Shown here: positions 10,084 to 43,856 of the stretch, in pieces
Numbering within the stretch: position 1 is the stretch's first letter
Layout: each line of letters begins with the position of its first letter
DNA from: Coprinopsis marcescibilis
Lineage: Eukaryota > Basidiomycota > Agaricomycetes > Agaricales > Psathyrellaceae
DNA length: 64,000 nucleotides
Direction of reading: 5' to 3'
NCBI GenBank assembly: GCA_004369085.1
Contig: ML210241.1
Span: 1-64,000, forward strand
Position numbers and translations under genes: made by a program
Notes under the pieces: model-generated
Seen by the model: the letters and a program-made list of their open reading frames with translations, nothing else
The model's database searches: none
Told to the model about the DNA's origin: nothing

Positions 10084-10881
10084 TCACCTCCCAGGCGGCG
10101 GCGTGGAAGCACCGAACAAGCCCCCTCTAGGCGGTGGAGTGGGAATTGGCGGACTGTGTGCAGTGGGGACCGCCAATAGCGGGTTCGCTAGTGAAATACC
10201 ATACAACGCGTCAGGAGCACATATAGTATCGATGAAGAACCGGAACGTACGTCTCCATTGTGCCCAAGCAGGTACATTCGGTGGTGGCTCGAACATGGGC
10301 TGTGGGGGCAGCGCAATCGCAGCAAGAGGTTGCGGCGGCGGCGGCGGTGGAGCAGCAATCTTCTTCCTCCTCTCCATCTTCTTCGGCACCGTCCGCCAGC
10401 CCGGTCGAGCAGGCCCTATATCTTCCATAGGTGGAGGCGGCATCGGTGCCTCCAGAGCCATAGGCGGTGGTGGTCCATGCATCTGCATTCGCCAATATCA
10501 GCAATCGATAAGAGACCGCACTTTACGGGAAAGTAAACGCACAGCAGGCCTCCATCCTCCCCCAAATTCGCCACTGTACTTTGATTTGAGCGTCATCAGC
10601 TCGTCGATCTCGCTAGATATCGTTCCAGTAGGCATCAGCTGGGATGAAGTACGGGGGGGACAACAACGTACAACTGCAACTTTCTCTTCTCGTCCCTCAG
10701 TTTGCCGACTTCATCGAGTAGGATTCGCATCTCCCCAGCAAGAGCCTTGCTGAAATCAACCATATTCCTGTAGAAGATCATCAATCGTCAGCCTGGATTA
10801 TCCGTCCCACCTGATGAGTACCGCTCACTGTTTGCCAGGAGGAGCCTGATGAGACTGGTAAGGGGAGCCTTTCGAAGCCAT
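10084..10881 (-). CDS. Proline-rich/coiled-coil hypothetical protein, copy B
   Basis: Five exons (10829-10881, 10672-10767, 10543-10612, 10251-10482, 10084-10187) give 184 residues. Exons 2 and 3 have exactly the lengths of copy A (96 and 70). The N-terminus is followed by a helical exon (DFSKALAGEMRILLDEVGKL), then a short exon ending in WRPA, then GPARPGWRTVPKK, poly-Pro/Ala, and a tail ending in STPPPGR. Compared with copy A it lacks the His-Pro-Gly run but has a longer exon 1. All splice sites conform. The function is unknown. The gene is divergent from the metallophosphoesterase at 11537, sharing about 655 bp of upstream DNA. Confidence 0.72.
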
Positions 10882-17119: not shown

Positions 17120-19396
17120 TTAAGACAAAAAGGGTTCATCAGGGAGAAAAGGACTCGGAATATCCCATTCAACTCGGAACCCAGCAATTTCAGGAAAACG
17201 GCTAGAAACATAACGCGATTGGTCAAAGACAGCTAAATGATATCAAACGAGACGCCACTCACCCTTCCTGCGCGGGCCGCTTGGATAAACCAGACTCGAG
17301 CGCATCCCAAAGTGTGTTCCCATAAATCTCAATGACGACAACTGGATCAAGGAAGGGCAGAACAGTCAAAAGATCTCCCAGGGTAAGGTTCCCGGGAGGA
17401 TAGACGCGATCGCCTCGAAGTCCGCCAGCGTTCAAGAAGACGCCATCGGCCTTGGCGTAGCCGAGTTTCGCCAAGGCCTCATCGTAGGCATGATGGAGAC
17501 AGTCGCCAACCCAGTTCGATATGGCGGCCTGTGATCTATAGGTTAACAGCCAAACGGCTTAGAATCGCTGCAACGCCTTACCTCGTGAACGCGAACGAAG
17601 GTCGATTGTACATTGAGTTCAACCTCTGTGGTGCAGATAGGTTCGACCAACGCATCGTCGATCGTCCCAATCTCCACCTCGTAGACCTCCTGGACACCAA
17701 TATGAACAGGCGTAGTCTCTGCAGTCGAATGTCGTTTGCCTACCCAAAGAGGTGTTGTCAGCATTCAGGTTGACCGCACCGCACACACCGCGTACCTGTA
17801 ATCGCAGTGTTGACCTTCTTCTTGATGCTCCCCTGGGGCGTGTCCTGAAGAGTGAGAACGACTTCGCTCAAGTCCCGGAAATCGTATCCGCTCTTCACAA
17901 CAAGTATGTCGCCTCGATCGTCTGCGTCCTCTGGGGTCGGGGTATTCACGTCGTAGCCTTCCCACGCAGTTACGCCTTTGGTGATCCAGTAGATGTGGTC
18001 ATGGCCACCTAAGATGATGTCAACGCCGTGCTCAGCAGCAATGTTCGTGTTCGCCTGCGCAGCAGGTGAAAGGGCGAACAGATCTCGAGCGAGGGCGATG
18101 TCCTGAAAGTGGATTAGAATGGATTTGTGTCCAGTTAGAAAGGGCAACATACATTCTGAATGCTAAAGTCTTAGATATCGTTAGTTTGGGTTTGGCGCTT
18201 AATGGTTAGAAGCACATACCGAGAGTGGGTCAGCGCGATTACTAAGTCACACTTGTATTCCCCTTGCGGGTCGCGCAACTTGGCCGACAGCTTCTTTCCT
18301 ATTTCAGCTATATCTTGGTAAATGAACTCCTTTGGCCACCCGGTAATTGTAGGAATCCAATCCCTAAACCAAAGGTTAGAGCCATGCTTTCGACTGACCA
18401 AATGAAAGGGTTACACATTTCCACCAGTCCAATAAGGCCGATGCGAAGCCCGACACGCTCAAGGATGTGGAATTCCTTTAAGGGCTCAGGGACTGTACCC
18501 GTTGTCTCATCGATGACGTTACTCAGCAACCACGGCTAAACACCTTCAGCTTAAGCGCCACTTCACAACAACCAAAGCATACTTACGAACGTGGTAAGGG
18601 CAATCAACTCTTTGGTGCGCGGATAACCTAGCTAATGGTAAGTTTTATTAAGCTAGACGAGTCAATGAGCCCATACCAAAATCAAATTCATGATTTCCTG
18701 AAGAAAAAAAGGCGTGAGTGGAAGACTGCTCTCGTTTAAGAGAAGCAGTCAACACTCACGGCGGACGGCACACAAACAGTGCAAATGATGAGGCGTATAT
18801 TTGTGAGAGAGAGACGTATGTGAGGGTAAGAGGGAAAAAGAGAAGAAGGAGCAGTCTATCAAGTCGCGTCGCGTCGTATATAGGTCCAGATAGTTGTCAT
18901 GTGATGGTGTCCTTACACTGAGTGCGACTATCATCATAATAACAAGTACTTAGCTACAATGCAAACTTACCAACGATAGCAATGTCAACATTCAATGCAT
19001 TGACGATAGGAGGCTAAGTAGAGTAGCAAACGACTCGTGAGAATACGATAGACGGGCAGAGACAGTTGGCCTACATACCATATGTCGTCCACGCGTAATG
19101 GAACTTTCGATTGACGGAGAGAAAAAGTCCCCGGAAAAGACAATCAACCCATCCCGGGCACCGTCGTCCCGCTGCTTCCACTTGGCTGTTATACCTTCAA
19201 GCAAGGACCCGAATTTGGTGACATCAATCGTTCCACCGCTGGTACCGACTTTCTACGACGACACTTGGTAGACGTCGTTGAAGTGGGCAATGCCAAGGGT
19301 GATTGGGGTGCTAGAGGACGTGGACACAAGTTAGCGTCATAGAGCGAATGTATTAAAGGTGGGCGGAGCCTAATACCTGGTGTTGTTGGTGGACAT
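17120..19396 (-). pseudogene. 5'-nucleotidase-type metallophosphoesterase, paralogue 1: nonsense codon and truncated C-terminus
   Basis: Twelve exons can be laid out: 19377-19396, 19079-19310, 18971-19013, 18677-18697, 18587-18627, 18417-18535, 18220-18363, 18153-18162, 17796-18102, 17582-17739, 17263-17528 and 17120-17201. Most lengths equal those of the intact paralogue at 20079-22760. Motifs present are FNDVYQ, SGDFFSPS, GNHEFDFG, THSR, GGHDH and the C-terminal NAGGLRGDR. However, exon 2 has a TAG at 19253-19255 where both paralogues encode Gln, and the protein ends soon after GFRVEWD, lacking about 235 C-terminal residues of paralogue 2. Splice sites remain good, so decay is young. Read-through or a downstream start cannot be excluded. 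Confidence 0.8.
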
Positions 19397-23025: not shown

Positions 23026-24019
23026 ATGAATCAATCAGGACCTATGCAGGTATGGGGAACTTTTAAGGATGCTTGGGCATACTAATACAATATGTCTAGG
23101 AATTTCATCCCCCAATGAGACTGGCCTCCCCGAAATCAACATGCATGAAGGTCGCGGACATTTGCACCTCTCAGGACGATTTCCTCATTGCTATTGTTCC
23201 AAAAGATGCAAAAAGAGAACTTTATCCGCAGGGAATTGTCTGTCTCGAGCAGAAATCTTCGCAGGCCAATCTGGAGGTGGGGCTGGAGCGAACTGTTTCG
23301 CCAGTGAAGGCGCCAAAGAGTGATGTGTCGGAGAGAATAGCCAGGATGTTTAAGGAGTTGGAACAGGAGAAGGTGCAAGTCCAGCACGAGCTTGGGGAGA
23401 TGAAGGTGGGATTCAAGGAGATGCGGCATGAACTTGGGGAGATGGAGGTGGGAGTCAAGGAGATGCNNNNNNNNNNCAAGGAGATGCGGCATGAACTTGG
23501 GGAGATGGAGGTGGGAGTCAAGGAGATGCAGCATGAACTTGGGGAGATGGAGGTGGGAGTCAAGGAGATGCAGCATGAACTTGGGGAGATGGATGTAGAA
23601 GTCAATAATATGCAGCATGAACTTGGGGAGATGGAGGTGAAAGTCAAGGCGATACAGCAGGAATCTTGGGAGATGGAGGTGGAACTCGGGTCCTTGATGC
23701 AGCAGGAACCTGGGGAGGTGAAGGGGGAACTCAACGATACGGGCAAGAGTAGGGAGAACGAGTGCGTGCATACTAAAAAGCGAGAAGCAGCATCCCTGGA
23801 AGCTCTCATGAAGCAAGAGAGGCAACGAGAGAGGGAGAGTGCTGAGGTTAAAGCGCAGCTTGCAGAACACGACGCTGTCCTCAAGGGGCTCCGACACCAA
23901 ATGCAGTTTCTTCAAAATGTTGTCTACATCCTTATTTCAAGTACGTCCTTCAACCCTGAGATTTCTCCATCCTCGAGCCCTCTGACACTGTTTATGGTGC
24001 AGATTCAGCTATCTACTAG
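23026..24019 (+). CDS. Coiled-coil repeat protein, interrupted by an assembly gap
   Basis: Three exons (23026-23049, 23100-23940, 24003-24019) give at least 293 residues. After a globular-looking N-terminus (IAIVPKDAKRELYPQGIV) comes a long Glu/Lys/Met-rich coiled coil built from 14-residue units of the type KEMxHELGEMEVGV (two heptads each), then a charged helix (KQERQRERESAEVKAQLAEH). A final 17-nt exon ends the protein. Ten Ns at 23467-23476 lie inside the repeats; the frame shown is kept only because of the arbitrary gap size. No function is known; self-association is expected. Confidence 0.7.
23371..23705 (+). repeat. 42-bp tandem repeat (two-heptad coding unit) with gap
   Basis: At least six units of 42 bp based on CATGAACTTGGGGAGATGGA are visible, degenerating towards the 3' side. 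The gap at 23467-23476 falls within them, so copy number is unresolved. Confidence 0.85.
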
Positions 24020-24680
24020 TTTGCATTTAGAGTGAGTGATGGCCCTGACAAAAGTATAAGGTCTGTATAATTCTCCGCCGTATAGAAGCTACTAGGATCG
24101 ATAGAAATAATAGTAATGCGTGGAATTGAACTTTGAGAACCACGGTGGCCATTGAAAAGTAATCGAGAACTTTGCTCAGCGCTTCCGGCAGCGACCGAGA
24201 ACTGGATTGGTTCCAGGGCCACGGAATCCCTTGACAGTATTGCTGGCAATGCCGGATAGAATGCACGCAGGTCTCCCGCAAATGCACAATCACGACCAGA
24301 CCAAGACGTCGGATTCGGCTGGCTTCGGTTGTACACCTCTCCGCGATAAGTACTGACAAGGGACGCCCATTTTTGGACACCATTAGTTGGTGCTTAAGTC
24401 ACATGGGCTCGATTTAGCTCACCACACTTCTCCGCCCGTAGGCTGCTCATCAGTTCGCTCGGTTTGAAGTGGTGTAGGGAAACGAACCAGTAGATGACAA
24501 TGATTCATTAAATATCCGCGACGGATCGACCCAGTGACCGTTTTCTGTGCGAGCATCCTCTGGGTACGCAAGTCAAGATCTTGCAAGCTGCTGACCAGCC
24601 GTCATGATAGGCCAAGTCGGCATAGGCTATCCTGCTCACCTGAGAAGTTGATTCATTTATGGCTTCCGACGATGATACAG
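24020..24680. other. Intergenic
   Basis: No supported gene; promoter of the 24760 gene begins at its right end. Confidence 0.5.
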
Positions 24681-24759: not shown

Positions 24760-26456
24760 ATGTACCCCAAAGTTGTTGCACTAGACACCGAGTAAGCACT
24801 TTTGTGTATGTGGAAGAATCCCTCCTTGACTGACATTTGTCCACCAGCTGGACCATCTTCAGCGGATGGCTCTCCAAGGATAAATGGGGCAAGGGAGCCG
24901 GAGCAGCGCAGAAGATCGAGGATAATATCAAGGAGATAAGCTCGCGAGAGGTTCAAGACAAAACGTGAGTTATATGAATAACCCTCGTGATTGCTTACAC
25001 TCACGGTCAGGGCCCTAGTAATGCTCAGAACAAATGTGTCATGTACGAAGATGTCCCAAGAATAATCGAGGATATCCTAAAAAACGGGGCCAAACTCGCC
25101 ATTGTTTCTTGCAACACCAGCAAGGATTTGTGAGTAAAGATGTATCTGTGTGGTGCGTTTGCTTCTGACCCCCTGTGATAACAGGTGCGACAGGGCTCTC
25201 TACTTCTTCAAGGTGAAGGATGGTAGTGGAAAGGAGAAACGACTGATTGAACTCGTCAGCTTCGACGAGGTATACAACTGTTAGTATCCCTCCCTAGATA
25301 TATCCGTTTTCTTCAAAGCTCACACTCGCCTCCAGCGGAGAAGACTGTCCATTTTGAGAAGATAAAGGGTTGGGCGAAGTGCCACTACACCGACATGGTA
25401 AAGGATCGCTATCGCCACGCAACGTCATCCGTATTTACTTCTAACCTTGTTCCAGATCCTATACGACGACGAAGCCATCAACAACATCGTCGAAATAAAA
25501 CTCGGTAATTATTCTACAGCTCCCATCTCAGCGTATCTCTTACTTCCGATAAAAGGTGTGACTTTCCAGGTCTCCCGCGACCAGAAAGGCCTAACGTGGG
25601 CAAACTACCAGCAAGGTATTTCGGTCTGGCGCCGCAACAAGGAAATTGAAACCCCGTGGCTTGGGAATGACGCGAAGCTCTATCCCAAGAAGAAGTTCAT
25701 CGGATACTCGGGCATGGACCTCGACACTATCAACCTTTTAGAAGCTGGGGGTAGACGCCATGATCGCAAGGAGGCCGCGCGATGGGGCTATTCAATGTAC
25801 ATCGCGGACGACCCTCTAATGTAAGTCTGGGCACTGCCACTACTGTCAAGTGAAAGACTGATGTCATAAACATCAAACTATAGCGCGAAGTACTTCTCTG
25901 ATTGGATAAAGGACCCTACCGTCGGACTCGGGCCCAGCGCCAAGACAGTCGTCTGTGCAATCTACTTCAGAGACGAGTCGATCTTCAATAAGATACCAAA
26001 AGTCAGGATCATTCTATTACATGCTCACTACTATAGTCATGACTGACACTAACTGTTCTGCAGATCTGGGTCCCGGAGGACAAGACCCTCCAAACTAACA
26101 ACGTTTCTGGCAAGCCCTTTGACATCGCCTGGAGCCAAGAGAATCGAGACCTCAAAGTTGAATCGTGGGGCGTAAAGAAGCCCTACATTCTCTTCGCCCG
26201 CCACCACAACATGCCCAAGGAGAAGTGGGGCCTCCCGTTCCCCATACCTTACCCTCAGCGCTTCAATGAAATGGTCATATATCCCCAGGTCCAGGAGGCC
26301 CAGATCCTTATTGTCCGACTCTCGGATGCGGACCTGGCGAAGCATATTCGCGATGGACCCCATCTGCATTACGAGAAGAAGTTGACGGAGTGGAATATTA
26401 CGGTACCTTCGGAGACAAAGAAGGATTTCGTGGCGAATAAAGAAAGCTTCGCGTAG
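24760..26456 (+). CDS. HAD phosphatase (MDP-1-like) fused to ADP-ribosyltransferase-like domain, gene 1
   Basis: Nine exons: 24760-24791, 24848-24964, 25019-25129, 25185-25279, 25336-25397, 25456-25504, 25556-25820, 25884-26001 and 26064-26456; 413 residues. Residues 1-180 form an MDP-1/Acid_PPase-type HAD domain: LDTDWT (nucleophile D9, general acid D11), AIVSCNTS (S80), HFEKIKGW and LYDDEAINN (D143-D144), all intact. Residues about 200-400 resemble an ADP-ribosyltransferase fold: FIGYSGMD (203-210), WGYSMYIADDP (232-242) and FNEMVIYPQ (350-358, candidate catalytic Glu352). The ART assignment is pattern-based. It likely acts in the cytosol, with no signal peptide. A near twin lies at 28501-30150 and a broken copy at 27067-27720. 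Confidence 0.82.
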
Positions 26457-27066
26457 ATTTCCTTCTGTATTTACTTGTACAGTATTGCCGGGCGTATGAT
26501 ACGTTGACGTTAACGTCAATTAAACCGCGACCTCAAGCGAATCTGCCAGACTAGTCAGGAGATCAGCGGCTCCAGTCCAAGTCCGCACACCGATGTGCCT
26601 CCTCTTTTTTCTAACCAAATCAAAAGAGCCTTGACCCGGCGACTTCGAAGACTATGTGATAAGTATCGGCCTAGTTGGATCTCCGGTGAACAGCCAAAGA
26701 ATTCTTTGAAGACCTAATAGGGTCGCTTCGGAGGATATTGCCACTTAGATAGATACTATTTTTGGCCCGTCTCAAGCTTTCATGGAAACCTCGAATAGGT
26801 GTGAAGGTACGTCGAGAAGCGCTGCGAGCGATTAAACTTCTCTGCATGAACCGTATTGCTACATGAGTAGAATCCCCCAGCCACTGCAAGAAGCGTGAAA
26901 GGCTACGGTTTGGCTCCCGAGTCCGGATAGACCAGCACAAAGAAAGGAAATATCAAATTGTGTTGTCCCATGTATTAGGCATCCAATAAATATGCGCTCA
27001 GATGAACATTCCAACCTGAGCATCTCGTCCCTTCTCTGCCTGTATCTATCTAATCAGAACGAATAT
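26457..27066. other. Intergenic
   Basis: 3' flank of HAD-ART gene 1; nothing supported. Confidence 0.45.
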
Positions 27067-27720
27067 ATGACATCCCCCAAGATTCAATGTTGCCCTTGAT
27101 ACTGAGTAAGCCGGAAGACCTGCACGTTATCATTCTGGTTGAAGCGATTTAGAGTATGTGGCGCCGAAACAAGGGTATCGAAAGCCCATGGCACGGCTTT
27201 GGACCTCAACCTCTACCCGAAGAAGAAACTGATCGGTTACTCTGGGATGGACCTCGAGACCATCAAGCTTCTGGAAGCTGGAGGCAGGCGCCACGACCGT
27301 AAGGAGGCTGCGCGATGGGGTAAGTTACCCATGTACGTCGCGGATGACCCTCTAATGTAAGTCTATGCAACAGTTTAGTAGTAAAGATTGAAAGCTGATC
27401 TCCTGTAATAGTGCAAAGTACTTCTCGGACTGGATCAAAGATCCCAGTACGGACTCAGGCCTACCGCCCAAACAGTTGTCTGTGCGATCTACGCCAGAGA
27501 GGAAATTTTTTAACAAGATGAATAAGGTATGAGGTCTGAACACTCACTCCCCGCTGATAGATACCAACGTCGCCTATTTCTATAGATTTGTGCCCCAGAC
27601 GACACTTTCATCAGTGACGGACCCCACTTGCACTATGAACAGAAATTTAAGGAATGGGATATCACGGTACCCTCAGAGGCGGTGAATGATTTCCAAACCC
27701 ATAACGAGAACTTCTTGTAG
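27067..27720 (+). pseudogene. Decayed HAD-ART copy
   Basis: A degraded first exon at 27067-27105 retains the VALDTE-GTAAGC boundary. Nearly all HAD exons are missing. From about 27150 the ART-like region follows (WRRNKGIESPWH, KKKLIGYSGMD, MYVADDP), closer to the gene at 28501-30150 than to gene 1. An extra T in GGCTTTGGACC shifts the frame, later sequence (AKYFSDWIKDP) is shifted again, and most of the last exon is deleted before HYEQKF and the stop at 27718-27720. Confidence 0.85.
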
Positions 27721-27900
27721 ATATCCTTCTGGATTATAGTACTCCCTTCAATGAACAACAACTTGGGATTGAATTTGCTTTCACGATGTTCGAGTAATCT
27801 ACAAGACTTTCAAACAAGCACATCCGCCATGACCGTCACGGTATGACGCGGCACAGCCAAGAGATTGCATCGTCAAGCCACTTTCGGCGCCCACGCGGTA

Positions 27901-28183
27901 CCTCGCGCACGGACCACGCTCATTTTTTATAAAAGGCCGCCCCCAGCCTTCCTTGATTCCTTAGAACATACTCAGCAAGGATCTATTTTATAGAAACTTA
28001 CCGAGTCTCGCATTTTTACAAATGCCACATCTTCATATCCACTCGATGACATTCGCGCTCTCTCGTTATACTGAGAACATGACTCTTTACTGAGTCTCGA
28101 GGACGTTTGGTTCGTCCATTGGGCATGCTCGCAAGGGCTGCTTGATGGACTTGCCAGCGAGCTGAGCGTCGGTCTGATGGATA
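27901..28183. repeat. 284-bp dispersed direct repeat, copy 2 (partner 14972-15255)
   Basis: Near-identical to 14972-15255, same orientation. The TATA box here is TATAAAAG (27928-27935). The 23-codon frame is at 28022-28093 and differs by one Ala-to-Thr change. It lies between the HAD-ART pseudogene and the 3' end of HAD-ART gene 2. Confidence 0.85.
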
Positions 28184-28500
28184 CCCTCTTTGCTTTGGCT
28201 TTTTTACTTCAGTACTACGTTTCGCAAGCCTCATCTAGTCGTCTCTGCCCTTCTTAATAGCCTGAAATTTATAATTTCACCGGAACTTGTACAATTGGTC
28301 CCCGTTTCATCTTTGAAAGCAAATTGCGCGGAAAGTTGGGGATACGAGTAGTTATACATAAGGCTTTACATCGCAGCACTGGTGACGTGGGAGTATCAAT
28401 TTGATATGGACACAAAATACAACAAACGATTCCAAGAGAATGAAGTCAGCCAGACGGGTATACAACACCTGAGGCCTGAGCCCTGGACTGTGGATAGCAG
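28184..28500. other. Intergenic
   Basis: 3' flank of HAD-ART gene 2; nothing supported. Confidence 0.45.
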
Positions 28501-30150
28501 TTAAAAATTTTCATTCCATCGCCTGAAGTCCGCCCTAGCTTCGTTCGGGACGGTGATATTCCACTCCGAGAACTTCTGCTCGTAATGAAGATGAGGACCA
28601 TTCTGAACGTGGTGATTAAGCTCCTGGTCCGACAAGCGGACTGTGAGCATGAGGGCTTCTTGAACTTGGCCATAGACAACCATCTCGTTAAAGCGCCAGT
28701 TGTTGGGAACAGGGAATCCCCTGCCCATATTCGGGTGTCGAGAGAAAAGGATGTAAGGCTTTTTCACGCCCCAGGATGCAACTTTGCGGTCCCGGTCCTC
28801 TTGGCTCCAAGCGACCTGGAACTTATTTGGAGAACTGACGTTGGTCTTCATGTCATTCTGGTCCGGAACCCAGATCTAAAGCAAAGCTCGAGTCTGAGTC
28901 TCGACAAAAGACTGATGAATAACGCAACACAAACCTTGGGCAAGCTGTTGAAAATGGAGTCATCTCTTGCATAGATGGCACAGACAATCGTTTGAGCTTG
29001 GGGACCAAAAGCAGTCTGCTTGATCCAATTCGCGAAATATTTGGCGCTGCAGGGATCGGATGAGCTTTATTCCCAAGAAATGATGCAGGAGGTATACGCA
29101 CACGGCAGGATCGTCGGCGACATACATTGCGTATCCCCAACGCGCTGCTTCGATTCGGTCGTGCCGTCGGCCCCCCGCTTCCAGAAGCTTAATGGTCTCG
29201 AGGTCCATACCAGAGTAACCAATGAGCTTCTTCTTCGGGTAGAGGTTGAGGTCCAAGCCGTGCCATGGGCTTTCGATAGCTTTGTTTCGGCGCCACATGT
29301 CGAGACCTTCCTGGTAGTTCTCCCAAGTGAGTCCTTTCTGGTCTCGTGAGACTTGAAAGGTAACGCCTATTAGTTGGCTTGGAGGTCAGCATACATCGCT
29401 TATGTAGCGTTGGCAGCACGAACCGAGCATCATTTCGACTATGTTGTTGGGGGCCTCGTCATCGTAATGAATCTATCAAGCTGTTAGACGCCGTCTGTGG
29501 CCCATATAATGAGTGCTCACCATCTCTGTGTAGTGATGACCAGTATACCCTTTGATTTTCTCAAAGTGAACAGTCTTCTCAGCTACGTAGAAATTGCAAG
29601 TGAGAAGACGTTTAGAGGGTTTATATCGATTTACTGACAGTCATAGACTTCGTCGAATTTTACGAGCTCGATAAGCCGTTTTTCCTTTCCGTGATCGTCT
29701 TTGACTTTCCAGTACCAGAGCGCCCTGTCACACCTACGAAGCAATGATTAGCTACGCTTTATTTACTTGAGGCTATTAGTCCCCTTACATGTCCTTGCTC
29801 GTGTTACGCGACACGACTGCAATCTTCGCGCCATTCTTCAAGATATCTTCGACGATGCGTGGGATATCAGCATACATGCCGCATTTGTTGTTGGCGTTAC
29901 TGCACCGTCATCAGCGTTGGCGAGGCAGATACGAGATCCGAAGCTCACGTTCTATCTTGGATTTCCCAGTAGTTCACCTGATTAATGTTATCTTGAACTG
30001 GGTTGAAGGCTCCCGCGCCCTTGCCCCAAGTGTTCTTGTTGAGCCATCCCCAGAATATGGTCCAGCTAGAACATACGTCAACCTGAGGGGGCCATAAGAT
30101 ACATAAAGAACCTACTCAGTGTCAAGGGCAACGACCTTCGGGTAAGCCAT
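28501..30150 (-). CDS. HAD phosphatase (MDP-1-like) fused to ADP-ribosyltransferase-like domain, gene 2
   Basis: Nine exons: 30116-30150, 29949-30065, 29789-29899, 29639-29733, 29521-29582, 29424-29472, 29102-29366, 28935-29046 and 28501-28875; 406 residues. Six internal exons have the same length as in gene 1. HAD motifs are intact: LDTDWT (D10, D12), AVVSRNTS and HYDDEAPNN. The C-terminal domain has LIGYSGMD, WGYAMYVADDP, QTIVCAIYARDDS and FNEMVVYGQ (candidate catalytic Glu). The pattern suggests a phosphatase acting on, or regulating, a product of the ART half, for example an ADP-ribose or nucleotide phosphate; this is inference. It is divergent from the HAD-kinase gene at 31105. Confidence 0.82.
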
Positions 30151-31104
30151 TTCCTATACTCAGTAGGGTTAAGTTGGATTCGAGAGGAACGGAACGCTGT
30201 ATTCGTCCTGTTAACTGACTGCTTATTTATTACAATTGCTTCAATACATTTGATTGGTATGAAGAGGTTCGTTTATCTGGCTGTCCATCCGCTTTCTGTT
30301 GACCTGGTCCGTCCGGGCTCGGCAGCCAAACCTTTAGTCTTTCCTGTAATCGAATAATGCGCTAGTAATGATCAGCTGAGGGGCTTTCCATTGAGCTATC
30401 CATACCCCAGCTGTACGGGGAGAAATCTCCGCCGATGGCACCTTGCAGGGAAGACCTGTCGTTTCGTTATCCAGGCTAGAATTGGTCGCCGTTTCTACTC
30501 GTGCTATTGTTCTCGTCCACCCTAGTGGGAGGAGTCCTCGGACGAGCTATTGGCTCGGGTGATTTCAAAAGGAACTTGGTTCTCGCGGTCATTTCTTGTA
30601 CCGGCGTGTTACAATCCCGGCCGTTCTTCACGATGTTATCGCCATCTCGGTTCCGACCACCCTGCGCTTTCGTATTCGTGCATGGGAAAGATTCTTTTCA
30701 GAAGCTCCAGCTTCGCAAACTCGAAAGTTAGAATTGACAACTATCTCACTTTGACAGGCAGTCTGCATCGAAGTGCCGACACGAGTTCAAGCCTCAGGCC
30801 TCCTGAGCCTCGCTAGTCCAGATCTGCTCATCTGAGATTTTGCTCAGCAGACGCGTAGTACAGGATCTTCGAATTCCGAATCTCCCCGCCCACTTGATCA
30901 TAGTTTCAGCTTCAAGTCAATGCTTGGAGGTGTGGCTGCTACTTCTCACGTTATTATGGGACTGGATTGGCTAGTAGGCAACAATCGAATTGCTTATAAT
31001 GAGCTGTTTTCTACGTACTCATTTAAGCACAGTACATCGCCAGCAAGGTACTGTATCCGAAACCTTATACCCGTTCACCTACAAGCTGCTAGTCATTCGA
31101 GACA
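30151..31104. other. Divergent intergenic region between two HAD-fusion genes
   Basis: About 950 bp separating the start codons of HAD-ART gene 2 and the HAD-kinase gene. No supported gene. Confidence 0.5.
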
Positions 31105-33012
31105 ATGCCCGTCCGAGTAATTGCCTTTGAAGTCGAGTGAGTCCTCGAGAGGTTCTTCCCTGCAACGCAGTGCCATCGGCCGATAGCCACTAATACTTCC
31201 CTTAGCGACACACTATGGCGAGGTCAACTTGATGAGAACAAATTTGGCAAAGGTCGCGACGCCCTACCAAAGCTTGAGGACAATCTTGAGAAGATCGACG
31301 ATTATGAAATCCGCGACAGGAGGTTTGTGTTCAATACTTTCGTTGAGCGCCTACTAAGTCAACCCTTTAGCAACCATAAGAACTCTATCACTCTTTTCAG
31401 AGATGTGCCCAAGATTATTCACGATATCCGCAAACGAGGAATCAAGTTGGCTATTGTCTCGAGTAACTCGAGTAAGGCTTTGTACGTAAAGCCACCTGAG
31501 TGACGCTGTTCGTCGCTGTACGACGTCCTAACCTTTCAAAAGGTGCAACAGGGCACTTTATCACTATAAGGCATACGACACCGACAATGAACTGAAGCCC
31601 ATCATCTCTATGGTGGTATACAACGAGTTGGGGAAGGACCAACGTTCGTACATTTTGGTATTCAAGTCGCATCAAGTACTCACACTAATGACCATGCGCA
31701 CTGCAGGCGCCAAAGTCGAGTCCTTCAAACAAATCCAGGAGTGGAGTCAAGCGAGCCACAAGGATATAGTGGGTGTTTGACTCTGACGCTCATGCGTGAC
31801 GCTAGTTGACATGGCTTAGGTCTACTTCGACAGCAACCCAGACAGCAAGGAGGTCCAAGATAAACTGGGTTAGTGCACCGTCTTTCCCGGAGGCTAAGTT
31901 GCTCCAAGACTGAAACTTGATGATTTACAGGCGTCAAGTTCGAACAGGTCAGCAGATCCCGAGGGATTACCTGGGACGACTATCGTAAGTCCGTTGAAGA
32001 CCACTCTGGAGGCGGCGATCCGTACGACACGCCATTCTGTAAGCGGGTTGCTTTTCTTTAGCTCCTGTACATGGCATCTCATCATCGCGTAGACAACCAG
32101 CCCGAGGTCGGCAAGGCTCTTGGGTCTGGAAAGTTTGGCACCGTCTATGAATCTCCGGACGATCCGCAATCTGTGATCAAAGTTCTCAAGTTCTGGACGA
32201 AGGAAAGTCGTCGCAGATTCCTCGAAATATACTCCATCATTAAGAAAGGAAAGCCCTTCGATCCCGGCAACAACAACGATGACCAGTATATTCTGATGGT
32301 CGCCTTTGAGATTCGAAACCTCGAGGCCGTCGGGCAGCTCTTAGCTCCGAAGCCAGAGCAGTTCACTGGCTGGTTGAGGATGACCAAGATTGCTGGTACT
32401 CGGATCTGGAAGACACCGCTCTACAAAAAGCATCCCTTCAGTGTCTCATTCCAAGAGTTCATCAAAACTGCTTTCCATCTTGCTGTTGACGAAATTGAGG
32501 ATGCGGTTAAGAAGTACGGCCTCGAGCACAGGTGAGCTTTAAATTGCCTGATTTTACGTAGACATTCCACTAAAGGGTATACGCAGGGACGCTCACCTTG
32601 CCAATGTCTACTTCACGATGGACGGTGACCAACCAGTGAAGGGGCATTTGCTCGACTGGTCAGTAGTTTTTCTGCTTGCCGTTGTTCCATGACGACGTTG
32701 CTAACGCAACTTTCTATTCAAGGGGTATCGCGGTCAAAATGAAGTGGGACGGAAAATACTACATTCGAGGCGACGATAAAATTCTGTGGCAAGATAGCGA
32801 GGCTGGGGCCAAATACACAAAGGAAGAATTCGTACGTTTCAGACCAATCACAATATTGTTTACAGCTCTAATGATCCTTGTGATTTCAGAGACGCTACTG
32901 GATAACCTGGATGGTGAAGACAGAGTACGAAGCCAATATGAAGAGGAACGCAATTACGGAAAGCGATGGGTATAACTTCCTCAAGGACCTCGATTGGTGG
33001 TTTAAGCGATGA
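31105..33012 (+). CDS. HAD (MDP-1-like) domain fused to a kinase-like domain
   Basis: Eleven exons: 31105-31136, 31206-31322, 31371-31481, 31543-31643, 31707-31768, 31820-31868, 31931-32038, 32093-32531, 32587-32658, 32723-32831 and 32890-33012; 440 residues. Residues 1-180 align with the neighbouring HAD domains, but motif I reads FEVDDT, so the nucleophilic Asp is Glu (E9), and motif IV reads YFDSNP, keeping only one acid. From about residue 197 a kinase-like fold follows: LGSGKFGTVYE (203-213), VIKV (candidate Lys223), HRDAHLANV (339-347) and LLDWG (361-365). The splice into the kinase part uses the acceptor at 32092, giving a 54-nt intron in phase; using the nearer TAG at 32060 would break the frame. 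It is tail-to-tail with NRK1. Confidence 0.8.
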
Positions 33013-33046
33013 AGGATTAGTTAGCAACTCTTTTAATCGTTGGCCA

Positions 33047-34111
33047 CTAGGTGGATAACTCCCTTCCACTGAACTCAAGAGCCTTCTCCATGACCGTGTT
33101 TACCATATCAACCATCTTCGCTTCCGTACTTTCAAATAGAATCACATCCTTGACTTTCCCACTCAGCCCACCGGACTTTGCGTCCTCATTCTCAAACAAG
33201 TGCTTGTGAGCGTTGATGTAAGCAGGCCAAACGATTTTCTCCCAGTAATTCGGTGGATCTGTCCAAGTGTCGCCCTCTAGTAACATGATGAACGGTGTTG
33301 ACTTGAGTGCATTCGGCAATAAGCGCTCACCTGGGGTGAAGTAAGATCGGGACTCGCGTCTCGCCCTTGCGATATCCTCCGGAACACGGAGGAAAACGCG
33401 GGTGTCCAAGTTCGATACAACGCGCTACACAAAATGGTCAGAAATCGAATAACTTTCACACAAACAATGGAGCACAGCGCCAATACCTCGTCCCAATACA
33501 TCAGAAAGCCGTCAATGAGAACCCACACAATCTTCTCGTTACGTTTCTCGAGATACTCTCCAGCGAGCTTCTCGCTCTTCTCCTTCCAGCTCTTGACGAC
33601 ATCGTCATCGATCGGGACAGGACCAGTTTCATTGAAGCTATCGAAAGACTGGTGGTCACCTGGAAGTTCCCCTGTCTTTCTCAGCTCGGATAGAAAGGCG
33701 GACATCCGGTCCCAATCGATTGCCGTGGGAGCACTATCCCAGTCCGCGAACCCATATTCCGGATCCACAGGCAACTGTTCGGCTGGCTATACAAAGAGAT
33801 AAGGATAAGCCAATGAAGCGAGTGAACCTAAGGACAAGGCACGTACAGGTACGAAATCCTGACACGAACAGAATCATTCTCAACTTTCTAGAATGCATGT
33901 GAAAGAAAGGTTCGACGCACGTCTTGGTGAATGATTACACTTCCGTGAAGACACTTTCGAAGATGCTTTGCCAGGGTCGTTTTACCCGAGGAGGTAGCTC
34001 CTCTGACATACCACACAATGACGATCAGATAACGGAGAAATGAAAGCTATTCGCCCCCGGAACTTACCCAACACCAATCGTGATAACTCTAGTCTGAGTC
34101 GGATTCAACAT
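33047..34111 (-). CDS. NRK1: Nicotinamide riboside kinase
   Basis: Six exons: 34068-34111, 33921-34002, 33847-33858, 33487-33786, 33331-33424 and 33047-33276; 253 residues, normal for eukaryotic NRK1. The Walker A loop GGATSSGKTT spans the first intron (residues 15-24). IIHQDDFVP carries the Asp of the substrate site, WVLIDGFLMYWDE the Walker-B-like part, and YFTPEGDTWTDPPNYWEKIVW the lid/base-recognition region. The enzyme phosphorylates nicotinamide riboside (and nicotinate riboside) to NMN or NaMN with ATP. The 54-nt intron at 33277-33330 is inferred from family alignment; reading through it would stay open but insert 18 residues. Its stop lies 34 bp from that of the HAD-kinase gene. Confidence 0.9.
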
Positions 34112-34655
34112 GGTGATTGTGTGAAACAAAGAGTCGAGATGTTACGAAAGAGGACCACGACAGAGCGATGGAACAGAGCAGAGTGCGCGTGAGAAGTCTG
34201 GGGCGTCCGAATAGACGTGACAGTTTAATCTCAAAGTTCAAGTTCTCTTATGCGAGCCAAAATTCCATCGATATCGAAAATAGGCCATGACCCGACTGGT
34301 TCCTGGCCTGATGACTTTATCGATGAAAGTTTATCCTTCCATTTAAACCGCCAACATTCAATCTTGACACAGGGTTTACATTAGCGGCGTTGGTGATGAA
34401 AGCCAATACGGAGAAGACAGAAAGGTAAAGCATGTATAGGCGGAGCACACAGATACGCACACGTCCAAAGTCGAGCCGAGCCGAGCCAAACCAAGAGCGC
34501 GTGAGCCTTTGTCTACTTTGTCTCTTGTCTAATCAAGTGTCGGCTAGAATTGAGCATACCAGGTACCGACCAATTAATTCAGAACTAGAGAGTCGAAAAC
34601 ACATTCATTCATTGCTAATAGTACATTCGTAATCGTGACCAACTCAAACATATGA
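34112..34655. other. Intergenic
   Basis: Promoter region of NRK1 and 3' flank of the HAD-5'-nucleotidase gene; no gene seen. Confidence 0.5.
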
Positions 34656-37600
34656 TCATCCCTTCGAAACATCCTTCAACCTGCCATCTACAACAGGCCG
34701 AATAACAGGAAGAGTCGCCTTGCCCTCCTTGTCCGCCGCATCCAAAGTTGCCAACCTCGTCTTGACGTCATCACTAGCCGCGTTCGAGCCGGGAGAACTT
34801 ATCATCCTCGCGGATTTGGAAAGCACCGACACGCCCCTCGCAATCCCGGTCTGAATGATCGAAACAACCCCATACGTCTTGCACTCCAAACATCCTTGGT
34901 CCTTCTTCTGGCAGTTGGCGATATGCCTCCGGGCCCTGCGACGTTCATACGGGTCCAGTAGTCCCAGATCCACGTTGTCGACAAGCGAGAGAGCAGCGGG
35001 GATAAATTGGGAGGGAGCAAGTAGTTCGAGCACATTTGTCGGGGCGATGTTGGCTGTGGCAGAGCGGGTGAGGCCAGGCAACCCAGCAGCAAAAGTGGAG
35101 ACCATGGGAATGCTGAACGATCGCTGAGCTTGTTGCATTTGGTCGGCAACGCCTGCGACGATGCTTCGCGCTTTCGGCTGGGAGTTGGGTTCAATTATAG
35201 TGAGACCGCCTCCGCCTCCGCCGCCTTGGAGTTCCTTGTTCAAGAGTTGTGCACCTAGATTGAAGTGTATAAATTCAGAAAATAGTTCCTTGAAACTATG
35301 AAATTGCGTACCCGAGAGGAACTTCCTAACCAACTGACTCTTGGATTGACCATTCTCGGGGGTAATGACCAGCTTTTGACCCTTGAGAGCAGCATATCCA
35401 TCGCCTCCCTGCGAAAGGTATTCGCCGGTCACGATGAGATACTTCTTGTCGGAACGAGTCACTTTCTCCTTATCAACCAAGACTGGGATGCCATTCGGTC
35501 CGACTTGCGATGAATCTTCCAGCATCCAAACGCCGAGGACACGCTGGTTAGGTGGCTTGGTGCTGTCCCATTCAACCCGGAAACCTGAGATCGCAGGGAA
35601 GCGTCTATAATAAAAAATTAGAAGTAATCTACGGAAGGATGGCCAAATACGTACCCTTCCTGGGTTGGCCATCGAGAAAGACCGGACTCGAGAGCGTCCC
35701 ATAAAGTGTTCCCGTCAATCTCGAGAACGACCACAGGGTCGAGGTAGGGTAAAATCGTCATCAAGTCTCCGACGAAAATCTCGCCTAGTAGACGGTTAGC
35801 AATGATCAGATACGATGGAACATAGAAGCATACCAGGACCGAAAAGGCGATCTCCCCGGAAGTCACCGTTGTTGCATAAGACACCGTCAGCTTTACTGTA
35901 GCCTAGCTTGGTCAAGGCTTCGTCATAGGCGTGTCTCAAGCAATCAGCGATCCAATTTGCAATAGGTGACTAGACAGGAACCCTATGTCAGCGAACCGGG
36001 TGGGGTGAAAAATAACGCGCACCTCATTCAATCGAATATAAGAAGAATCGAGGTTGAGTTCTACATCCGAGATAAAGATGGCTTCTTGCATAGCATCGTT
36101 AATGGCCCCAATTTCTTCGTCGTAGACCTTCTTCATGGCTACATTCACAGGGGTATTCCCTCTGGTGACGTGTCGCTTGCCTACCCAAATTGTCAGTCAC
36201 TGGTAAAGGCCCAACACGACGACGATTTACCTTGGATGCCCGTAATGACCTTCTTTCTGATGCTCCCAGGGGGAGTATCTTCCAAGGTCAGCACGACCTC
36301 ACTCAGATCCTGGAAGTCGGTCCCGCTTTTGACCACCAAAACATCGCCTTGGTCGCCCGTTGCGTCGGGCAGCTTGGTCTCTAGATCATAGCCTTCCCAT
36401 TTCCCAACGCCCTTGGAGATCCAATAAACATGGTCGTGACCTCCTAAAAGGATGTCGACACCGTGCTCTGACGCGATGTTCCTCGTAGCTTGAGCAGTTG
36501 GGGAGAGTGCACCGAGCTCCCGAGCGAGTTTGATATCCTACATGTGGAAATTAGCACGAGAAAAAGAAGGAATGAACGATGGCTGACATTTGGGATGCTA
36601 GATGGTACGAACGATCAGGCAATATCCGGAATGCAGAAGAGGGACCACGAACCGAGAATGGGTCAACGCGATGACCAAGTCGCACTTGTGAGGTCCAGCT
36701 GGATCACGAAGGGTTTGGGAGAGCTTCTTTCCTACTTCGGCCATCTCCACGAATTTGAAGTTTTCAGGCCAGCCAGTGATGGTTGGGATCCAATCCCTGG
36801 CGAGAATATCAGCTATACAAGAACAATCACCGTCAAAGAATATTTACCTTTCTACCAACCCGATCAAACCAATCTTGACCCCAACTCTTTCGATGATGTG
36901 GAATTCTTTCAAGGGTTCAGGAACGTTCCCGGTTTGTTCGTCGATGATGTTGCTGAGAAGCCAGGGCTAGATATATATGGATTAGAACATGCCTAGAAGG
37001 GATACAATAGTGACCTACAAAAGTGGTGAGGTTGATCAGGGTCTTGAGTGTCGGATATCCGAAGTCAAACTCGTGGTTACCTAGATGAATAATGTTAGCG
37101 GCAAAAAGGATGAAGACCTATATAACTTACCAACGATGCCGATATCAACTTTCATGGCATTGATGATAGCAGGCTACGGAGGACGATCGGTCAGAAGAAG
37201 AATGCGCTGCGATCCTTTGAAGGCTCACCATGTGCTTTCCTCGAGTCACGGAGCTTTCCGTAGAAGGAGAGAACAAGTCACCAGAGAACACAATCAAACC
37301 ATCCCTACTCCCGTCTCCTCTGGCACTCCACTTCGTGGTTATTCCGTCTAACAGCGACGCAAACTTCGTAACATCGATGCTCTCTTCCTTGTTGATCTTC
37401 TGAGCTGACACCTGATAGACGTCGTTGAAATGGGCGATCCCGAGAGTAGTTGCTTTGGGTTTGGTTTTGGAAGCGCGCCAAAGCTCTAAGCCTTGGTTAT
37501 AGGCTGCCAGGGTCAACCCAGTCTGCCCATTGCTGGGATGGTTGATTACGCCCAACCCTTGGGCAGCAAGGCCGTTCGGGGATTCAGCACTATAGTAGAC

Positions 37601-38284
37601 CTAGAAGACAGTCAGGAAGTGCATACAGAGAAAAGGTAGCGGCACGCACCATATCTGAGTAGTCGAATTTGCTCCAGCCATGGATACGCTTGAAATGTTC
37701 TGTCACCGGTTCTGACGTACGATTACGGTTAGACACGCATAGAGCAGGCGATGGAAACACATACCATCAATGACTTCGTCGTATCGTACCAAACTGATGA
37801 TTGACGCTTCTTGTCCAGTCTTGGGGTCTACTGCCTTGAAGTAGTAAAGAGCCCGATCGCAGCTGGCAAAAGACGTGTTAGCACACTGACGATTATTCAT
37901 GACTCTCCGCCACTTACAGAGCTTTACTGGTATTGCGGGACACTATCGCTAGTGACGCCCCGCTCTTAAGGATGGCCGTCACTATCTGTGGTATGTCTTT
38001 GTTGAGATGTATCTGTACTGCATTATCGCTGCGAGAGTCAATACATGACAACCAAATTCAGAACCAAGATCGCTCTACCTTCTGTCGCGGAGCGTTAACG
38101 CATCGACTTGCTGGATGTTATCTGAGAGCTTCGGCTTGGCGTTCGGGCCTTTGCCCCACAGTTTTTCGTTCAACTGTCCGGTCCAAAAGGTTCCACTGTA
38201 AAGAACATGAGTGAATGGGTATACAAGTGCGGAACACAGAACATACTCAGTGTCTAAAGCGACGAGCTTTGGGTGCGAAGCCAT
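34656..38284 (-). CDS. Fusion of HAD (MDP-1-like) domain and 5'-nucleotidase
   Basis: Seventeen exons fit in phase: 38247-38284, 38079-38195, 37918-38028, 37765-37862, 37650-37711, 37229-37600, 37131-37173, 37019-37080, 36848-36966, 36653-36796, 36588-36597, 36231-36537, 36023-36180, 35834-35969, 35655-35784, 35312-35604 and 34656-35254; 932 residues. The HAD part begins LDTDGTFWTG (D11, D13) and keeps AIVSRNTS, but motif IV has become VYYSAES, without either acid. The junction is inside one exon (37229-37600): LTLAAYNQGLELWR of the HAD end runs directly into LGIAHFNDVYQV (from about residue 195). The nucleotidase keeps SGDLFSPS, GNHEFDFG, THSR, GGHDH, GNTLWDALESG and the Agaricomycete-type tail. 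Exons 4 and 5 of the free paralogue are fused here and one extra intron is present. Confidence 0.82.
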
Positions 38285-39079: not shown

Positions 39080-40727
39080 CTACGCTGGGTTTTTAAACAT
39101 GGAATAAAGCTGAAATATCTCCCGCAATGCCGCTTCCCCTCCCCTCCCTTCCCCTCTAGAGTTCCTATGAAGTCCACAAGCCTGGATGCGTGGAAAAAGG
39201 CAATAAAGAAATTTGGCCATGAGGATGGAGTCGTTGACGGTAAACGGCTGGTCTCCTGCAGAGTCATTGATATAGAGGAAGCTGAGTGGGTGATGTTTCC
39301 TTCCTCTCGGCGAATCCTCCTTCGATTCTTCGCACTCCACAGGCCCAAGATTGAGTGAAATCCGAACTTCCATAAGCCTGCAGCAATGGGTTGCGATGGA
39401 CTTTAAGCAGCGCAAATCTGGGTTATCTCTTCCAGGGCAGGCTGGTAAGGCGAGGTAGGTAAGATTTGGAAGCCCAGCTGCGAGGGCAGCGACAAACCCG
39501 TTGGATCCAGATATGTGCCCTGCGTTGATGGAAAGGCTTGTGATACTCTTTACTTCAAACAGAGGCGAGACGACTGGGAGGGAGAATGTGATGTCCAAGC
39601 TCATTGTCGTTCGATTTGTTTGTGTTACCTGTACGACCTGGAGGTTTGGTGATCCCTCTGCAAGTGTGCGGAAGCAGTTTTCTAAATGTGTCTGTGGATC
39701 CCTCTTGCGCATGGTGACAAGACAAACGTGTTTGACTGTCGAAAGCAGGATAGAAGAAAGGGCCAATGTTATCTCCTCTGCGCTGCCCCCAACCTGGAGG
39801 TACGAAAGGGACGGGAAAATTGGATGTGTGGAAGCGTCTTCTGCGACGATCGAATACGAGGTTGAAGGCAGAGTTGAATCCGGGGAGATATTCCGAGCAT
39901 TCATAGTGATTGAAGATAGTTCCGGAAGACGCCCCAGTGTCCTGATAAACGCTGTCGGTATTGAGAGCCGACCCGCTCGAATCGTAAGGTTCGTCAACTT
40001 CGTCAAGAGGCCAATGTAAGATAGCGGCCCCATGACACTGGGATCCAAGTTCCCATGCAGGTGTAACACACGCAGACTCTTCGCCTTCGATGCAATTGCG
40101 ACAATGAAGGCACGAAAGAAATCAAGGTCTGTGCCCTGAGAGTTTGCGTACCCAACCTCCTTCAACTCCACGACTTCCAACGATGCCGATAACGCGAAGA
40201 GCGCTGACGGATAGTCCACCTGTGGCGAACATACCACTCTCAGTGTCTTCACGTTGGGCAAGAAACTCGAGAGGCGCGGTCCGACGAAGAGGGAGATTAC
40301 TTGATGAGCGAATGGTGAAATCGGGTTTGGCGGTCGTTCTTGAGGCGTCATGATGATGGCTCTGACCCGGCGGCCAGTTCGCTCCGCACATTGCCAATCC
40401 TCGTCGGAAATGGCGCCGTTAAAGACCTGAAATGAAGCAGAATGAGTCTTTCTCGGAAATAATGAAATATATTCCACCAACCCATACATCGCCCAGTAGA
40501 ACAAAGTTCGACAGGAGCCTGTATAGAGGCAGAACGCCTGGAAGACAGGCCCACAGCAGGTTCAATGCCGTTTCCCGAAAGGTTCTACACGTCAATGCGA
40601 GGCACAGAAGTTGGCTTCTGGTGTCGTACGATGTGTAGCCGTTGACCTTGTACACGACCAGGTGGTTGAAGATACAATCGAGCAGGTCTTCGTTCGAAAG
40701 CACGTCTGAGGTGACTGTCGAGAGCAT
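39080..40727 (-). CDS. F-box-type protein, tandem copy 1
   Basis: Two exons (40482-40727, 39080-40426) separated by a 55-nt intron; 530 residues. The N-terminus (SDVLSNEDLLDCIFNHL ... LLCLALTCRTFRETALNLLW) is a degenerate F-box: an acidic lead, a Leu-rich helix, then the SRxxFxExALxxLW block that follows it. The rest contains leucine-rich segments such as LKTLRVV, LRVLHLHGNL and LTNLTIRAGRL, consistent with LRR-like repeats. Such proteins probably recruit substrates to SCF ubiquitin ligases. Tandem copy 2 at 41739-43400 shares intron position and layout. Confidence 0.82.
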
Positions 40728-43400: not shown

Positions 43401-43856
43401 CTTGTCGAAGTAAGATTGAGGGAATGCGAGCCTGTGGGAATCAGTCAAGCAGCGAGAAACGCACCAAGCGAAGACCTGGGTTATAACTGGCAATGTGCCA
43501 TAACTGAACCACACAGATCATAAACAGAAAGACATGAGGCTGTAGAAGGCAGACGGAAGATCAACGTCCAGCATCTATTACGATAACTAAAGGCACACGC
43601 CAAAGCACATAGTACTTGGACATGAAACAGGACACAGTATACACAACAACATACCTGGTAATACAAGCGGGCTTTCCCAAAAGTCCATTTCTACATTGCA
43701 TAACCACTATTAGCAGCCGAGTCATCAACAAAAATCGAGAAAGAAAAAAAGCAGGAGAGAGCAAGAGAAGGGAGAAAGTTTGGTGGGTGAGTGATCCACC
43801 CATCTATCGTAGATCCACTGCAAAACCCCCCCACCAAACCAAAGGATTAGGCGAAA
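43401..43856. other. Intergenic
   Basis: Promoter of F-box gene 2 and 3' flank of ERT1; no gene seen. Confidence 0.5.

What the first reader, a model, noticed from the sequence alone, without database searches (positions are those of the whole stretch)
24760..38284. One HAD phosphatase module attached to three different C-terminal enzymes in a single cluster
Four genes within 13.5 kb begin with the same MDP-1-like HAD domain. Exon lengths are nearly superimposable (first exon 32-38 nt, then 117 and 111, later 62 nt). The domain is followed by an ADP-ribosyltransferase-like module (two intact copies and one pseudogene), a kinase-like module, or a full 5'-nucleotidase. With NRK1 inside the cluster and more 5'-nucleotidase copies beside it, the locus looks like a module-swapping system around NAD, NMN, NR or ADP-ribose chemistry. 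The shared exon structure is seen in the sequence; the metabolic theme is inference.
Basis: partly seen in the sequence, partly recalled or inferred. Interest (0 to 1): 0.92.

Follow-up and report, generated by a model that had tools for sequence, protein, structure and literature searches.

The report
Shared phosphatase domain, three enzyme partners
A mushroom genome carries neighbouring genes in which one phosphatase-like domain is fused to a toxin-like ADP-ribosyltransferase fold, a kinase or a nucleotidase; the same kinds of fusion sit together in other mushroom-forming fungi, which points to an undescribed enzyme system whose job is unknown.

Summary
Four genes (24760-38284, Coprinopsis marcescibilis) start with the same MDP-1-like HAD module, with shared intron phases, fused in frame to an ART-fold domain (two genes, plus a decayed fragment), a kinase or a 5'-nucleotidase. 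Structure prediction supports the HAD, ART (exotoxin A-like) and kinase folds; Pfam supports the 5'-nucleotidase. It is not a local oddity: three searches returned 148 proteins, nearly all with these fusions. In named genomes HAD-kinase shares a contig with HAD-ART in 14 of 16, and a 5'NT fusion with another fusion in 9 of 11; all three lie on one contig in 5 of 35. Two chains join HAD, ART and 5'NT.

Active sites follow the partner: the HAD nucleophile is mostly kept beside ART, but is Glu in 21 of 24 and never Asp beside the kinase; kinase and nucleotidase sites are intact; the ART domain keeps Tyr and Glu, never the motif-I His.

'Module swapping' is not supported: HAD trees show few partner changes. 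The NAD theme is plausible but unproven; one of two NRK1 paralogues lies in the cluster. Most likely HAD is the common recognition or docking part of an intracellular enzyme set; this is inference.

The parts
24760..26456 (+). Gene A: HAD-ART fusion, 413 aa, 9 exons (first six 32/117/111/95/62/49)
   Evidence: model identical to public P0005; PF12689 100.4 bits
27153..27714 (+). Fragment B: decayed remnant of a HAD-ART gene (end of HAD plus parts of ART only); described, not mended
   Evidence: tblastn pieces; stop codons in the three-frame view
28501..30150 (-). Gene C: HAD-ART fusion, 406 aa, 9 exons
   Evidence: model identical to public P0001; AlphaFold pLDDT 95.8, pTM 0.92
31105..33012 (+). 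Gene D: HAD-kinase fusion, 440 aa, 11 exons; HAD nucleophile position is Glu
   Evidence: model identical to public P0103; AlphaFold pLDDT 91.6; motif columns
33047..34111 (-). NRK1-like kinase, 271 aa, 5 exons; a second paralogue lies on contig C40
   Evidence: PDB NRK1 2p0e E 2.4e-13 over residues 4-78; C40 pieces 41, 49 and 69% identical
34656..38284 (-). Gene E: HAD-5'-nucleotidase fusion, 932 aa, 17 exons including a 10-nt exon 36597-36588
   Evidence: PF12689, PF00149 and PF02872; residues 142-932 equal public P0148
20094..22670 (-). 5'-nucleotidase paralogue; no HAD match upstream
   Evidence: main pieces 51-76% identical to E; no HAD match between 22670 and 24760
17150..19300 (-). 5'-nucleotidase paralogue; no HAD match upstream; matches stop at residue 465 of the 744-aa nucleotidase part of E
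   Evidence: pieces 46-80% identical to E

Best explanation
This is a recurring gene cluster of mushroom-forming fungi that makes a small set of probably intracellular enzymes built on one MDP-1-like HAD module. Shown by computation: the module is fused to an ART-fold domain, a kinase, a 5'-nucleotidase, or an ART domain plus a 5'-nucleotidase; partners are mostly stable in the tree and the fusions recur on the same contigs. Inferred: the HAD is the common recognition or docking part, so that the enzymes meet the same phosphorylated ligand (a nucleotide or NAD-derived compound, or a modified protein) or assemble with one another. Where the HAD is intact (most HAD-ART proteins) it removes phosphate. 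In the kinase protein the nucleophile is Glu, so the HAD would hold the ligand without cutting it while the intact kinase adds phosphate; kinase and phosphatase would then be opposed, ligand-matched activities. The ART-fold domain, without the motif-I His but with Tyr and Glu kept, would bind NAD or an ADP-ribosyl compound, or act by changed chemistry. The 5'-nucleotidase would clear the nucleotide product, and the NRK1 paralogue could return riboside to NAD.
Against: No substrate, expression or interaction data. HAD-kinase has pTM 0.59, so its domains may not be coupled. Of 34 genomes with HAD-ART, 18 gave no HAD-kinase hit, 24 no 5'NT fusion and 14 neither (counted by hand; search sensitivity is limited), so the full set is not always present. 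Five of the 14 co-located genomes have contigs over 1 Mb, where sharing a contig alone says little. Only 52 of 82 scorable HAD-ART rows have the exact D-D-S-K-D set; motif IV is degenerate in part of HAD-5'NT. No shared upstream motif was found. Whether NRK1 is in the clusters of other species could not be checked.
Confidence: 0.35

Rival explanations
1. Intracellular defence or self/non-self system: the ART-fold domain and nucleotidase attack NAD or nucleotide pools (or a translation factor) when triggered, the kinase and HAD set the trigger, and NRK1 restores NAD.
For: Patchy spread, several paralogues per contig and a decayed copy. Fungal cell-death genes are often clustered with their regulators (PMC10197012, passages). 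ART fold like that of exotoxin A.
Against: Motif-I His absent in 93 of 93 scorable ART domains. PADLOC scan of A, C, D and a relative of E (P0141) gave only a weak kinase-part match for D (mad6, E 0.0016). I recognised no NLR, HET or gasdermin gene beside the cluster, but only by eye in the ORF lists.
Confidence: 0.22
2. Metabolic cluster making or degrading a nucleoside or NAD-derived small molecule: each fused protein does one step and HAD removes a protecting phosphate or keeps the enzymes together.
For: Kinase, phosphatase, 5'-nucleotidase and NRK1-like proteins together suit nucleoside handling (inference); a PDB relative of the 5'-nucleotidase is the NAD nucleotidase 3ztv; NRK1 paralogue in the cluster.
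Against: I recognised no backbone or tailoring enzyme, transporter or regulator next to the fusions, but only by eye in the ORF lists. The kinase matches protein-kinase-like folds.
Confidence: 0.22
3. Ordinary tandem gene family: one HAD gene picked up different neighbours by chance fusions; HAD is now mostly a passive leftover and the proteins work apart.
For: Nucleophile lost in HAD-kinase and motif IV decayed in part of HAD-5'NT. Duplicated HAD-ART genes lie side by side. Partners change rarely.
Against: A HAD part is found in 146 of 148 hits (in a few only in part), and Glu rather than assorted residues fills the nucleophile place in 21 of 24. Different fusion types stay on the same contigs.
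Confidence: 0.15

Closest known systems
MDP-1 / PF12689 Acid_PPase (HAD phosphatase)
   Different: The solved MDP-1 chains are lone domains of 164-187 aa; here it is the first part of a larger enzyme, 21-25% identical, and its nucleophile is Glu in HAD-kinase proteins
H-Y-E ADP-ribosyltransferases (exotoxin A class, PARPs)
   Same: Fold match of the C-terminal domain; a Tyr and a Glu kept
   Different: Motif-I His replaced by Ser, Ala, Val or Thr in 93 of 93 scorable; no secretion or entry part seen; fused to HAD
RIO / NleH-OspG type compact kinases
   Same: Fold and full catalytic residue set
   Different: Fused to a HAD whose nucleophile is Glu; Pfam Pkinase only weak (12 of 31 members at E <= 0.01; D itself 14.5 bits, cut-off 31.7)
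5'-nucleotidases (CD73, UshA, NAD nucleotidase)
   Same: Metallophos and 5_nucleotid_C domains and metal ligands
   Different: N-terminus is a HAD domain; about 220 further residues after 5_nucleotid_C
Polymorphic toxin systems (PMC3482391, passages read)
   Same: One N-terminal module with different C-terminal enzymes in one locus
   Different: No trafficking part recognised; partners mostly stable in the tree; fungal

Membership tests
MDP-1 / Acid_PPase HAD | Family profile above curated cut-off | tested here: met
   A, C, D, E: 100.4, 99.0, 75.4, 59.2 bits against 27
MDP-1 / Acid_PPase HAD | MDP-1 fold | tested here: met
MDP-1 / Acid_PPase HAD | Asp nucleophile of the DxD motif (motif recalled) | tested here: inconclusive
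   Met in A, C, E (family: 77 of 89 HAD-ART, 14 of 14 HAD-5'NT); not met in D (family: Glu in 23, Asp in 0 of 26)
H-Y-E ADP-ribosyltransferase | ART fold | tested here: met
   Foldseek 9g7m E 3.0e-4 prob 1.00, 3b78 E 4.9e-4; by sequence only weak, E 0.05-2
H-Y-E ADP-ribosyltransferase | His of motif I | tested here: not met
   Ser 66, Ala 13, Val 11, Thr 3 of 93 rows with all three motif columns filled, of 102
H-Y-E ADP-ribosyltransferase | Tyr of motif II and catalytic Glu | tested here: met
   Y and E in 93 of 93; that this Glu is the catalytic one is inferred from its strand, not from coordinates
H-Y-E ADP-ribosyltransferase | Transfer of ADP-ribose from NAD | not testable with these tools
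   needs an assay
Protein-kinase-like kinase | Fold and Gly-loop/Lys/Glu/Asp/Asn/Asp set (motifs recalled) | tested here: met
5'-nucleotidase | Metallophos and 5_nucleotid_C domains with metal ligands | tested here: met
   35.2 and 85.7 bits, cut-offs 21.5 and 23.6; ligand set in 14 of 14 scorable rows of 15
5'-nucleotidase | Secreted or periplasmic place | not tested
   no signal-peptide program here; the chain starts with the first HAD strand
Polymorphic toxin system | C-terminal enzyme exchanged often by recombination | tested here: not met
   HAD tree: 5 label changes where the least is 4, shuffled mean 36.8
Polymorphic toxin system | Trafficking domain and immunity protein | not tested
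   none recognised by eye; no systematic search
NRK1 | Similarity to solved NRK1 | tested here: met
   2p0e E 2.4e-13 over residues 4-78; activity not testable

The most novel reading that the evidence does not exclude
A matched writer/eraser set in which one HAD module serves as the common ligand reader: intact, it is the eraser; with its nucleophile turned to Glu, it becomes the substrate holder of the fused kinase (writer), while a re-purposed exotoxin A-type ART fold without His and a 5'-nucleotidase feed or clear an NAD-derived phosphorylated signal inside mushroom cells.
Probability: 0.2. Interest if true: 0.9.

Novelty: categorically new. Interest (0 to 1): 0.75.

Why it matters
If right, fungi have an undescribed, recurring enzyme set built by fusing one phosphatase module to opposing enzymes, with the module changed at its key residue where a kinase is attached. 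It gives a clear test: same ligand, different fate. It also adds a fungal branch to the exotoxin A-type ART fold and may link it to NAD salvage. The label 'categorically new' is for the arrangement; each fold is known, and my paper searches cover open-access papers only.

Tried and rejected
Gene models: a simple splice finder gave wrong starts or exons; these were corrected by hand from the exon pattern, with a further slip in C and E, and checked against public models.

HAD-less ART copy elsewhere in the genome: a weak hit on contig C114 was read and looks like chance. The Pfam-family search of the own genome found nothing, not even this cluster, so absence elsewhere is weak evidence.

Bacterial, archaeal and viral relatives: pattern scans with alignment A1 gave 63 and 26 candidate stretches, none confirmed. 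The structure search in viral models gave mostly HAD-type or unnamed proteins and one ART-PolyVal-like protein at rank 31 (E 0.014). Absence in these collections is not proof.

Shared promoter motif among seven upstream regions of 500 bases: not above shuffles.

Defence library: only a weak match for D, not pursued.

Literature: eight completed searches; judged by titles and abstract starts, none of the papers listed is on these fusions (one search listed 15 of 30). DUF5910, the weak Pfam match of the ART part (18 of 79 members at E <= 0.01), is in no held paper. PMC3482391, PMC10197012 and PMC13324453 were seen as passages only.

VIA-align rows for the ART part of C do not appear among the 50 shown because HAD fills the list; this is no evidence against the ART fold. 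In the Foldseek list the ART matches follow the MDP-1 ones and have modest TM-scores.

Full report
WHAT IS THERE. The window is bases 1-64000 of a 107,028-base contig of Coprinopsis marcescibilis, since proteins translated here equal its public records; it is an Agaricales species. Four genes between 24760 and 38284 begin with an MDP-1-like HAD domain: A (24760-26456 +, 413 aa), C (30150-28501 -, 406 aa), D (31105-33012 +, 440 aa), E (38284-34656 -, 932 aa). All four exceed the Pfam cut-off for PF12689. The first six introns have phases 2,2,2,1,0,1 in A, C and D; E has the first five. Their HADs are 31-74% identical to each other and 21-25% to MDP-1 in the structure alignments of C and D. The public model of E lacks most of the HAD; ours adds upstream exons whose product 14 HAD-5'NT relatives also have.

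WHAT THE C-TERMINAL PARTS ARE. C was modelled with 79 of the 102 HAD-ART hits (mean pLDDT 95.8, pTM 0.92). Foldseek gives MDP-1 for the first part and exotoxin A-type catalytic domains for the second (9g7m E 3.0e-4; 3b78 E 4.9e-4). By sequence the profile match to exotoxin A chains is weak (E 0.05-2); one of 79 members matches Pfam Exotox-A_cataly at E 0.0058 and 18 match DUF5910. D was modelled with all 31 HAD-kinase hits (pLDDT 91.6, pTM 0.59) and matches MDP-1 plus compact kinases. E has Metallophos and 5_nucleotid_C; its solved relatives are 5'-nucleotidases, among them NAD nucleotidase 3ztv (run with P0148).

NOT A LOCAL ODDITY. Three searches returned 102, 31 and 17 proteins, 148 different ones, the window's own included. 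By domain mapping 99 are HAD-ART, 29 HAD-kinase, 15 HAD-5'NT (three with a split match), 2 HAD-ART-5'NT, 1 HAD-ART-HAD and 2 kinase only (some are fragments, and P0148 counts as HAD-5'NT by its last 47 HAD residues). I tabulated the 117 proteins that carry an organism name; 31 metagenome proteins without one were left out. They fall in 35 genomes (Marasmius tenuissimus counted as two assemblies): 34 with HAD-ART, 16 with HAD-kinase, 11 with a 5'NT fusion (one of them only as HAD-ART-5'NT). Same contig was judged by organism plus contig length. HAD-kinase shares a contig with HAD-ART in 14 of 16 genomes (17 of 23 proteins); a 5'NT fusion shares one with another fusion in 9 of 11 genomes (10 of 12 HAD-5'NT proteins). 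Counted by hand from that table: all three types lie on one contig in 5 of 35 genomes, and in Paxillus ammoniavirescens a HAD-ART-5'NT chain lies with a HAD-kinase; 14 of 34 HAD-ART genomes gave neither other type. Five of the 14 co-located genomes have contigs over 1 Mb, where this says little, but locus numbers are often close: Pleurotus djamor g2927-2930; Marasmius oreades 5022, 5025, 5026, 5029, 5030; Collybiopsis confluens 6404, 6406, 6409, 6410. Orders looked up: Agaricales, Boletales, Polyporales, Corticiales, Russulales; HAD-ART alone also in three Ascomycota genomes, two of them looked up.

HISTORY. In a careful tree of 84 HAD rows plus two MDP-1 outgroup rows, HAD-kinase is one clade (100/100). 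HAD-5'NT and the two HAD-ART-5'NT chains form one clade (100/99) inside HAD-ART. The 84 rows were chosen by me from 130 (odd, long-branched and many near-duplicate HAD-ART rows left out), and the 130 from 148 by length; the quick tree of all 130 gives the same picture. The ART domains of the two three-part chains are sisters (99). The label needs 5 changes where 4 is the least. So the fusions are mostly stable: one possible path is HAD-ART, then HAD-ART-5'NT, then HAD-5'NT by loss of ART. Both three-part chains are truncated models, one from an unnamed metagenome, and one has a sister HAD in another Paxillus that is HAD-5'NT, so this path is not firm. Deep root order is unresolved.

ACTIVE SITES BY PARTNER (motif roles recalled). 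HAD beside ART: nucleophile Asp in 77 of 89; exact D-D-S-K-D set in 52 of 82 scorable rows. HAD beside kinase: Glu in 21, Asp in 0 of 24 scorable rows (23 and 0 of 26 for that column alone). HAD beside 5'NT: Asp in 14 of 14, but motif IV Asp in 8 of 14. Kinase set intact in 28 of 28, nucleotidase metal set in 14 of 14. ART: Ser/Ala/Val/Thr-Tyr-Glu in 93 of 93, His in none. A kinase whose phosphatase module is changed in a uniform way, next to the same module in mostly intact form, is the main reason for the writer/eraser idea.

NRK1 AND NUCLEOTIDASES. The cluster gene 34111-33047 is NRK1-like, and a second copy lies on contig C40 (pieces 41, 49 and 69% identical), so the cluster copy is not the only NRK1 of the genome; which one does the household work is not known. 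Two further 5'-nucleotidases without a HAD match lie at 17150-19300 and 20094-22670, and one on C46. Whether NRK1 sits in other species' clusters could not be tested: their DNA is not held here.

HOW IT MOST LIKELY WORKS. See Best explanation. Shown by computation: fusion, folds or profiles, co-location by proxy, history, motif pattern. Inferred: shared ligand, opposed kinase and phosphatase, NAD link, intracellular place. I give 0.35 to the whole statement; that the fusions exist and recur together is near certain.

NOVELTY. Eight completed searches of open-access papers listed nothing on these fusions, judged by titles and abstract starts. Each fold is known; the arrangement fits no known system that I tested.

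Noticed in passing
window 23384-23757: Tandem repeat with 21/42-base units inside an open frame 23100-24035 (+) beside the cluster; it reads as a long charged repeat protein, and 10 N lie at 23467-23476.
   Followed up: partly
window 39080-40561 and 41739-43517 (-): Two neighbouring long open frames that look like related F-box-type proteins (recalled resemblance, no profile run).
   Followed up: no
window 55585-56022 and 59964-60572 (-): Two open frames with similar unknown protein sequence by eye, a likely duplicate pair.
   Followed up: no
window 2365-2820 and 10084-10497 (-): Two proline-rich open frames that share a stretch by eye, about 7.7 kb apart.
   Followed up: no
window 34656-38284 (-), public record P0148: The public model of the HAD-5'-nucleotidase gene starts inside the HAD domain and hides the fusion.
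   Followed up: yes
P0038 (Panaeolus cyanescens): A protein with HAD-ART and a second partial HAD behind it, perhaps two genes joined by the annotation.
   Followed up: partly
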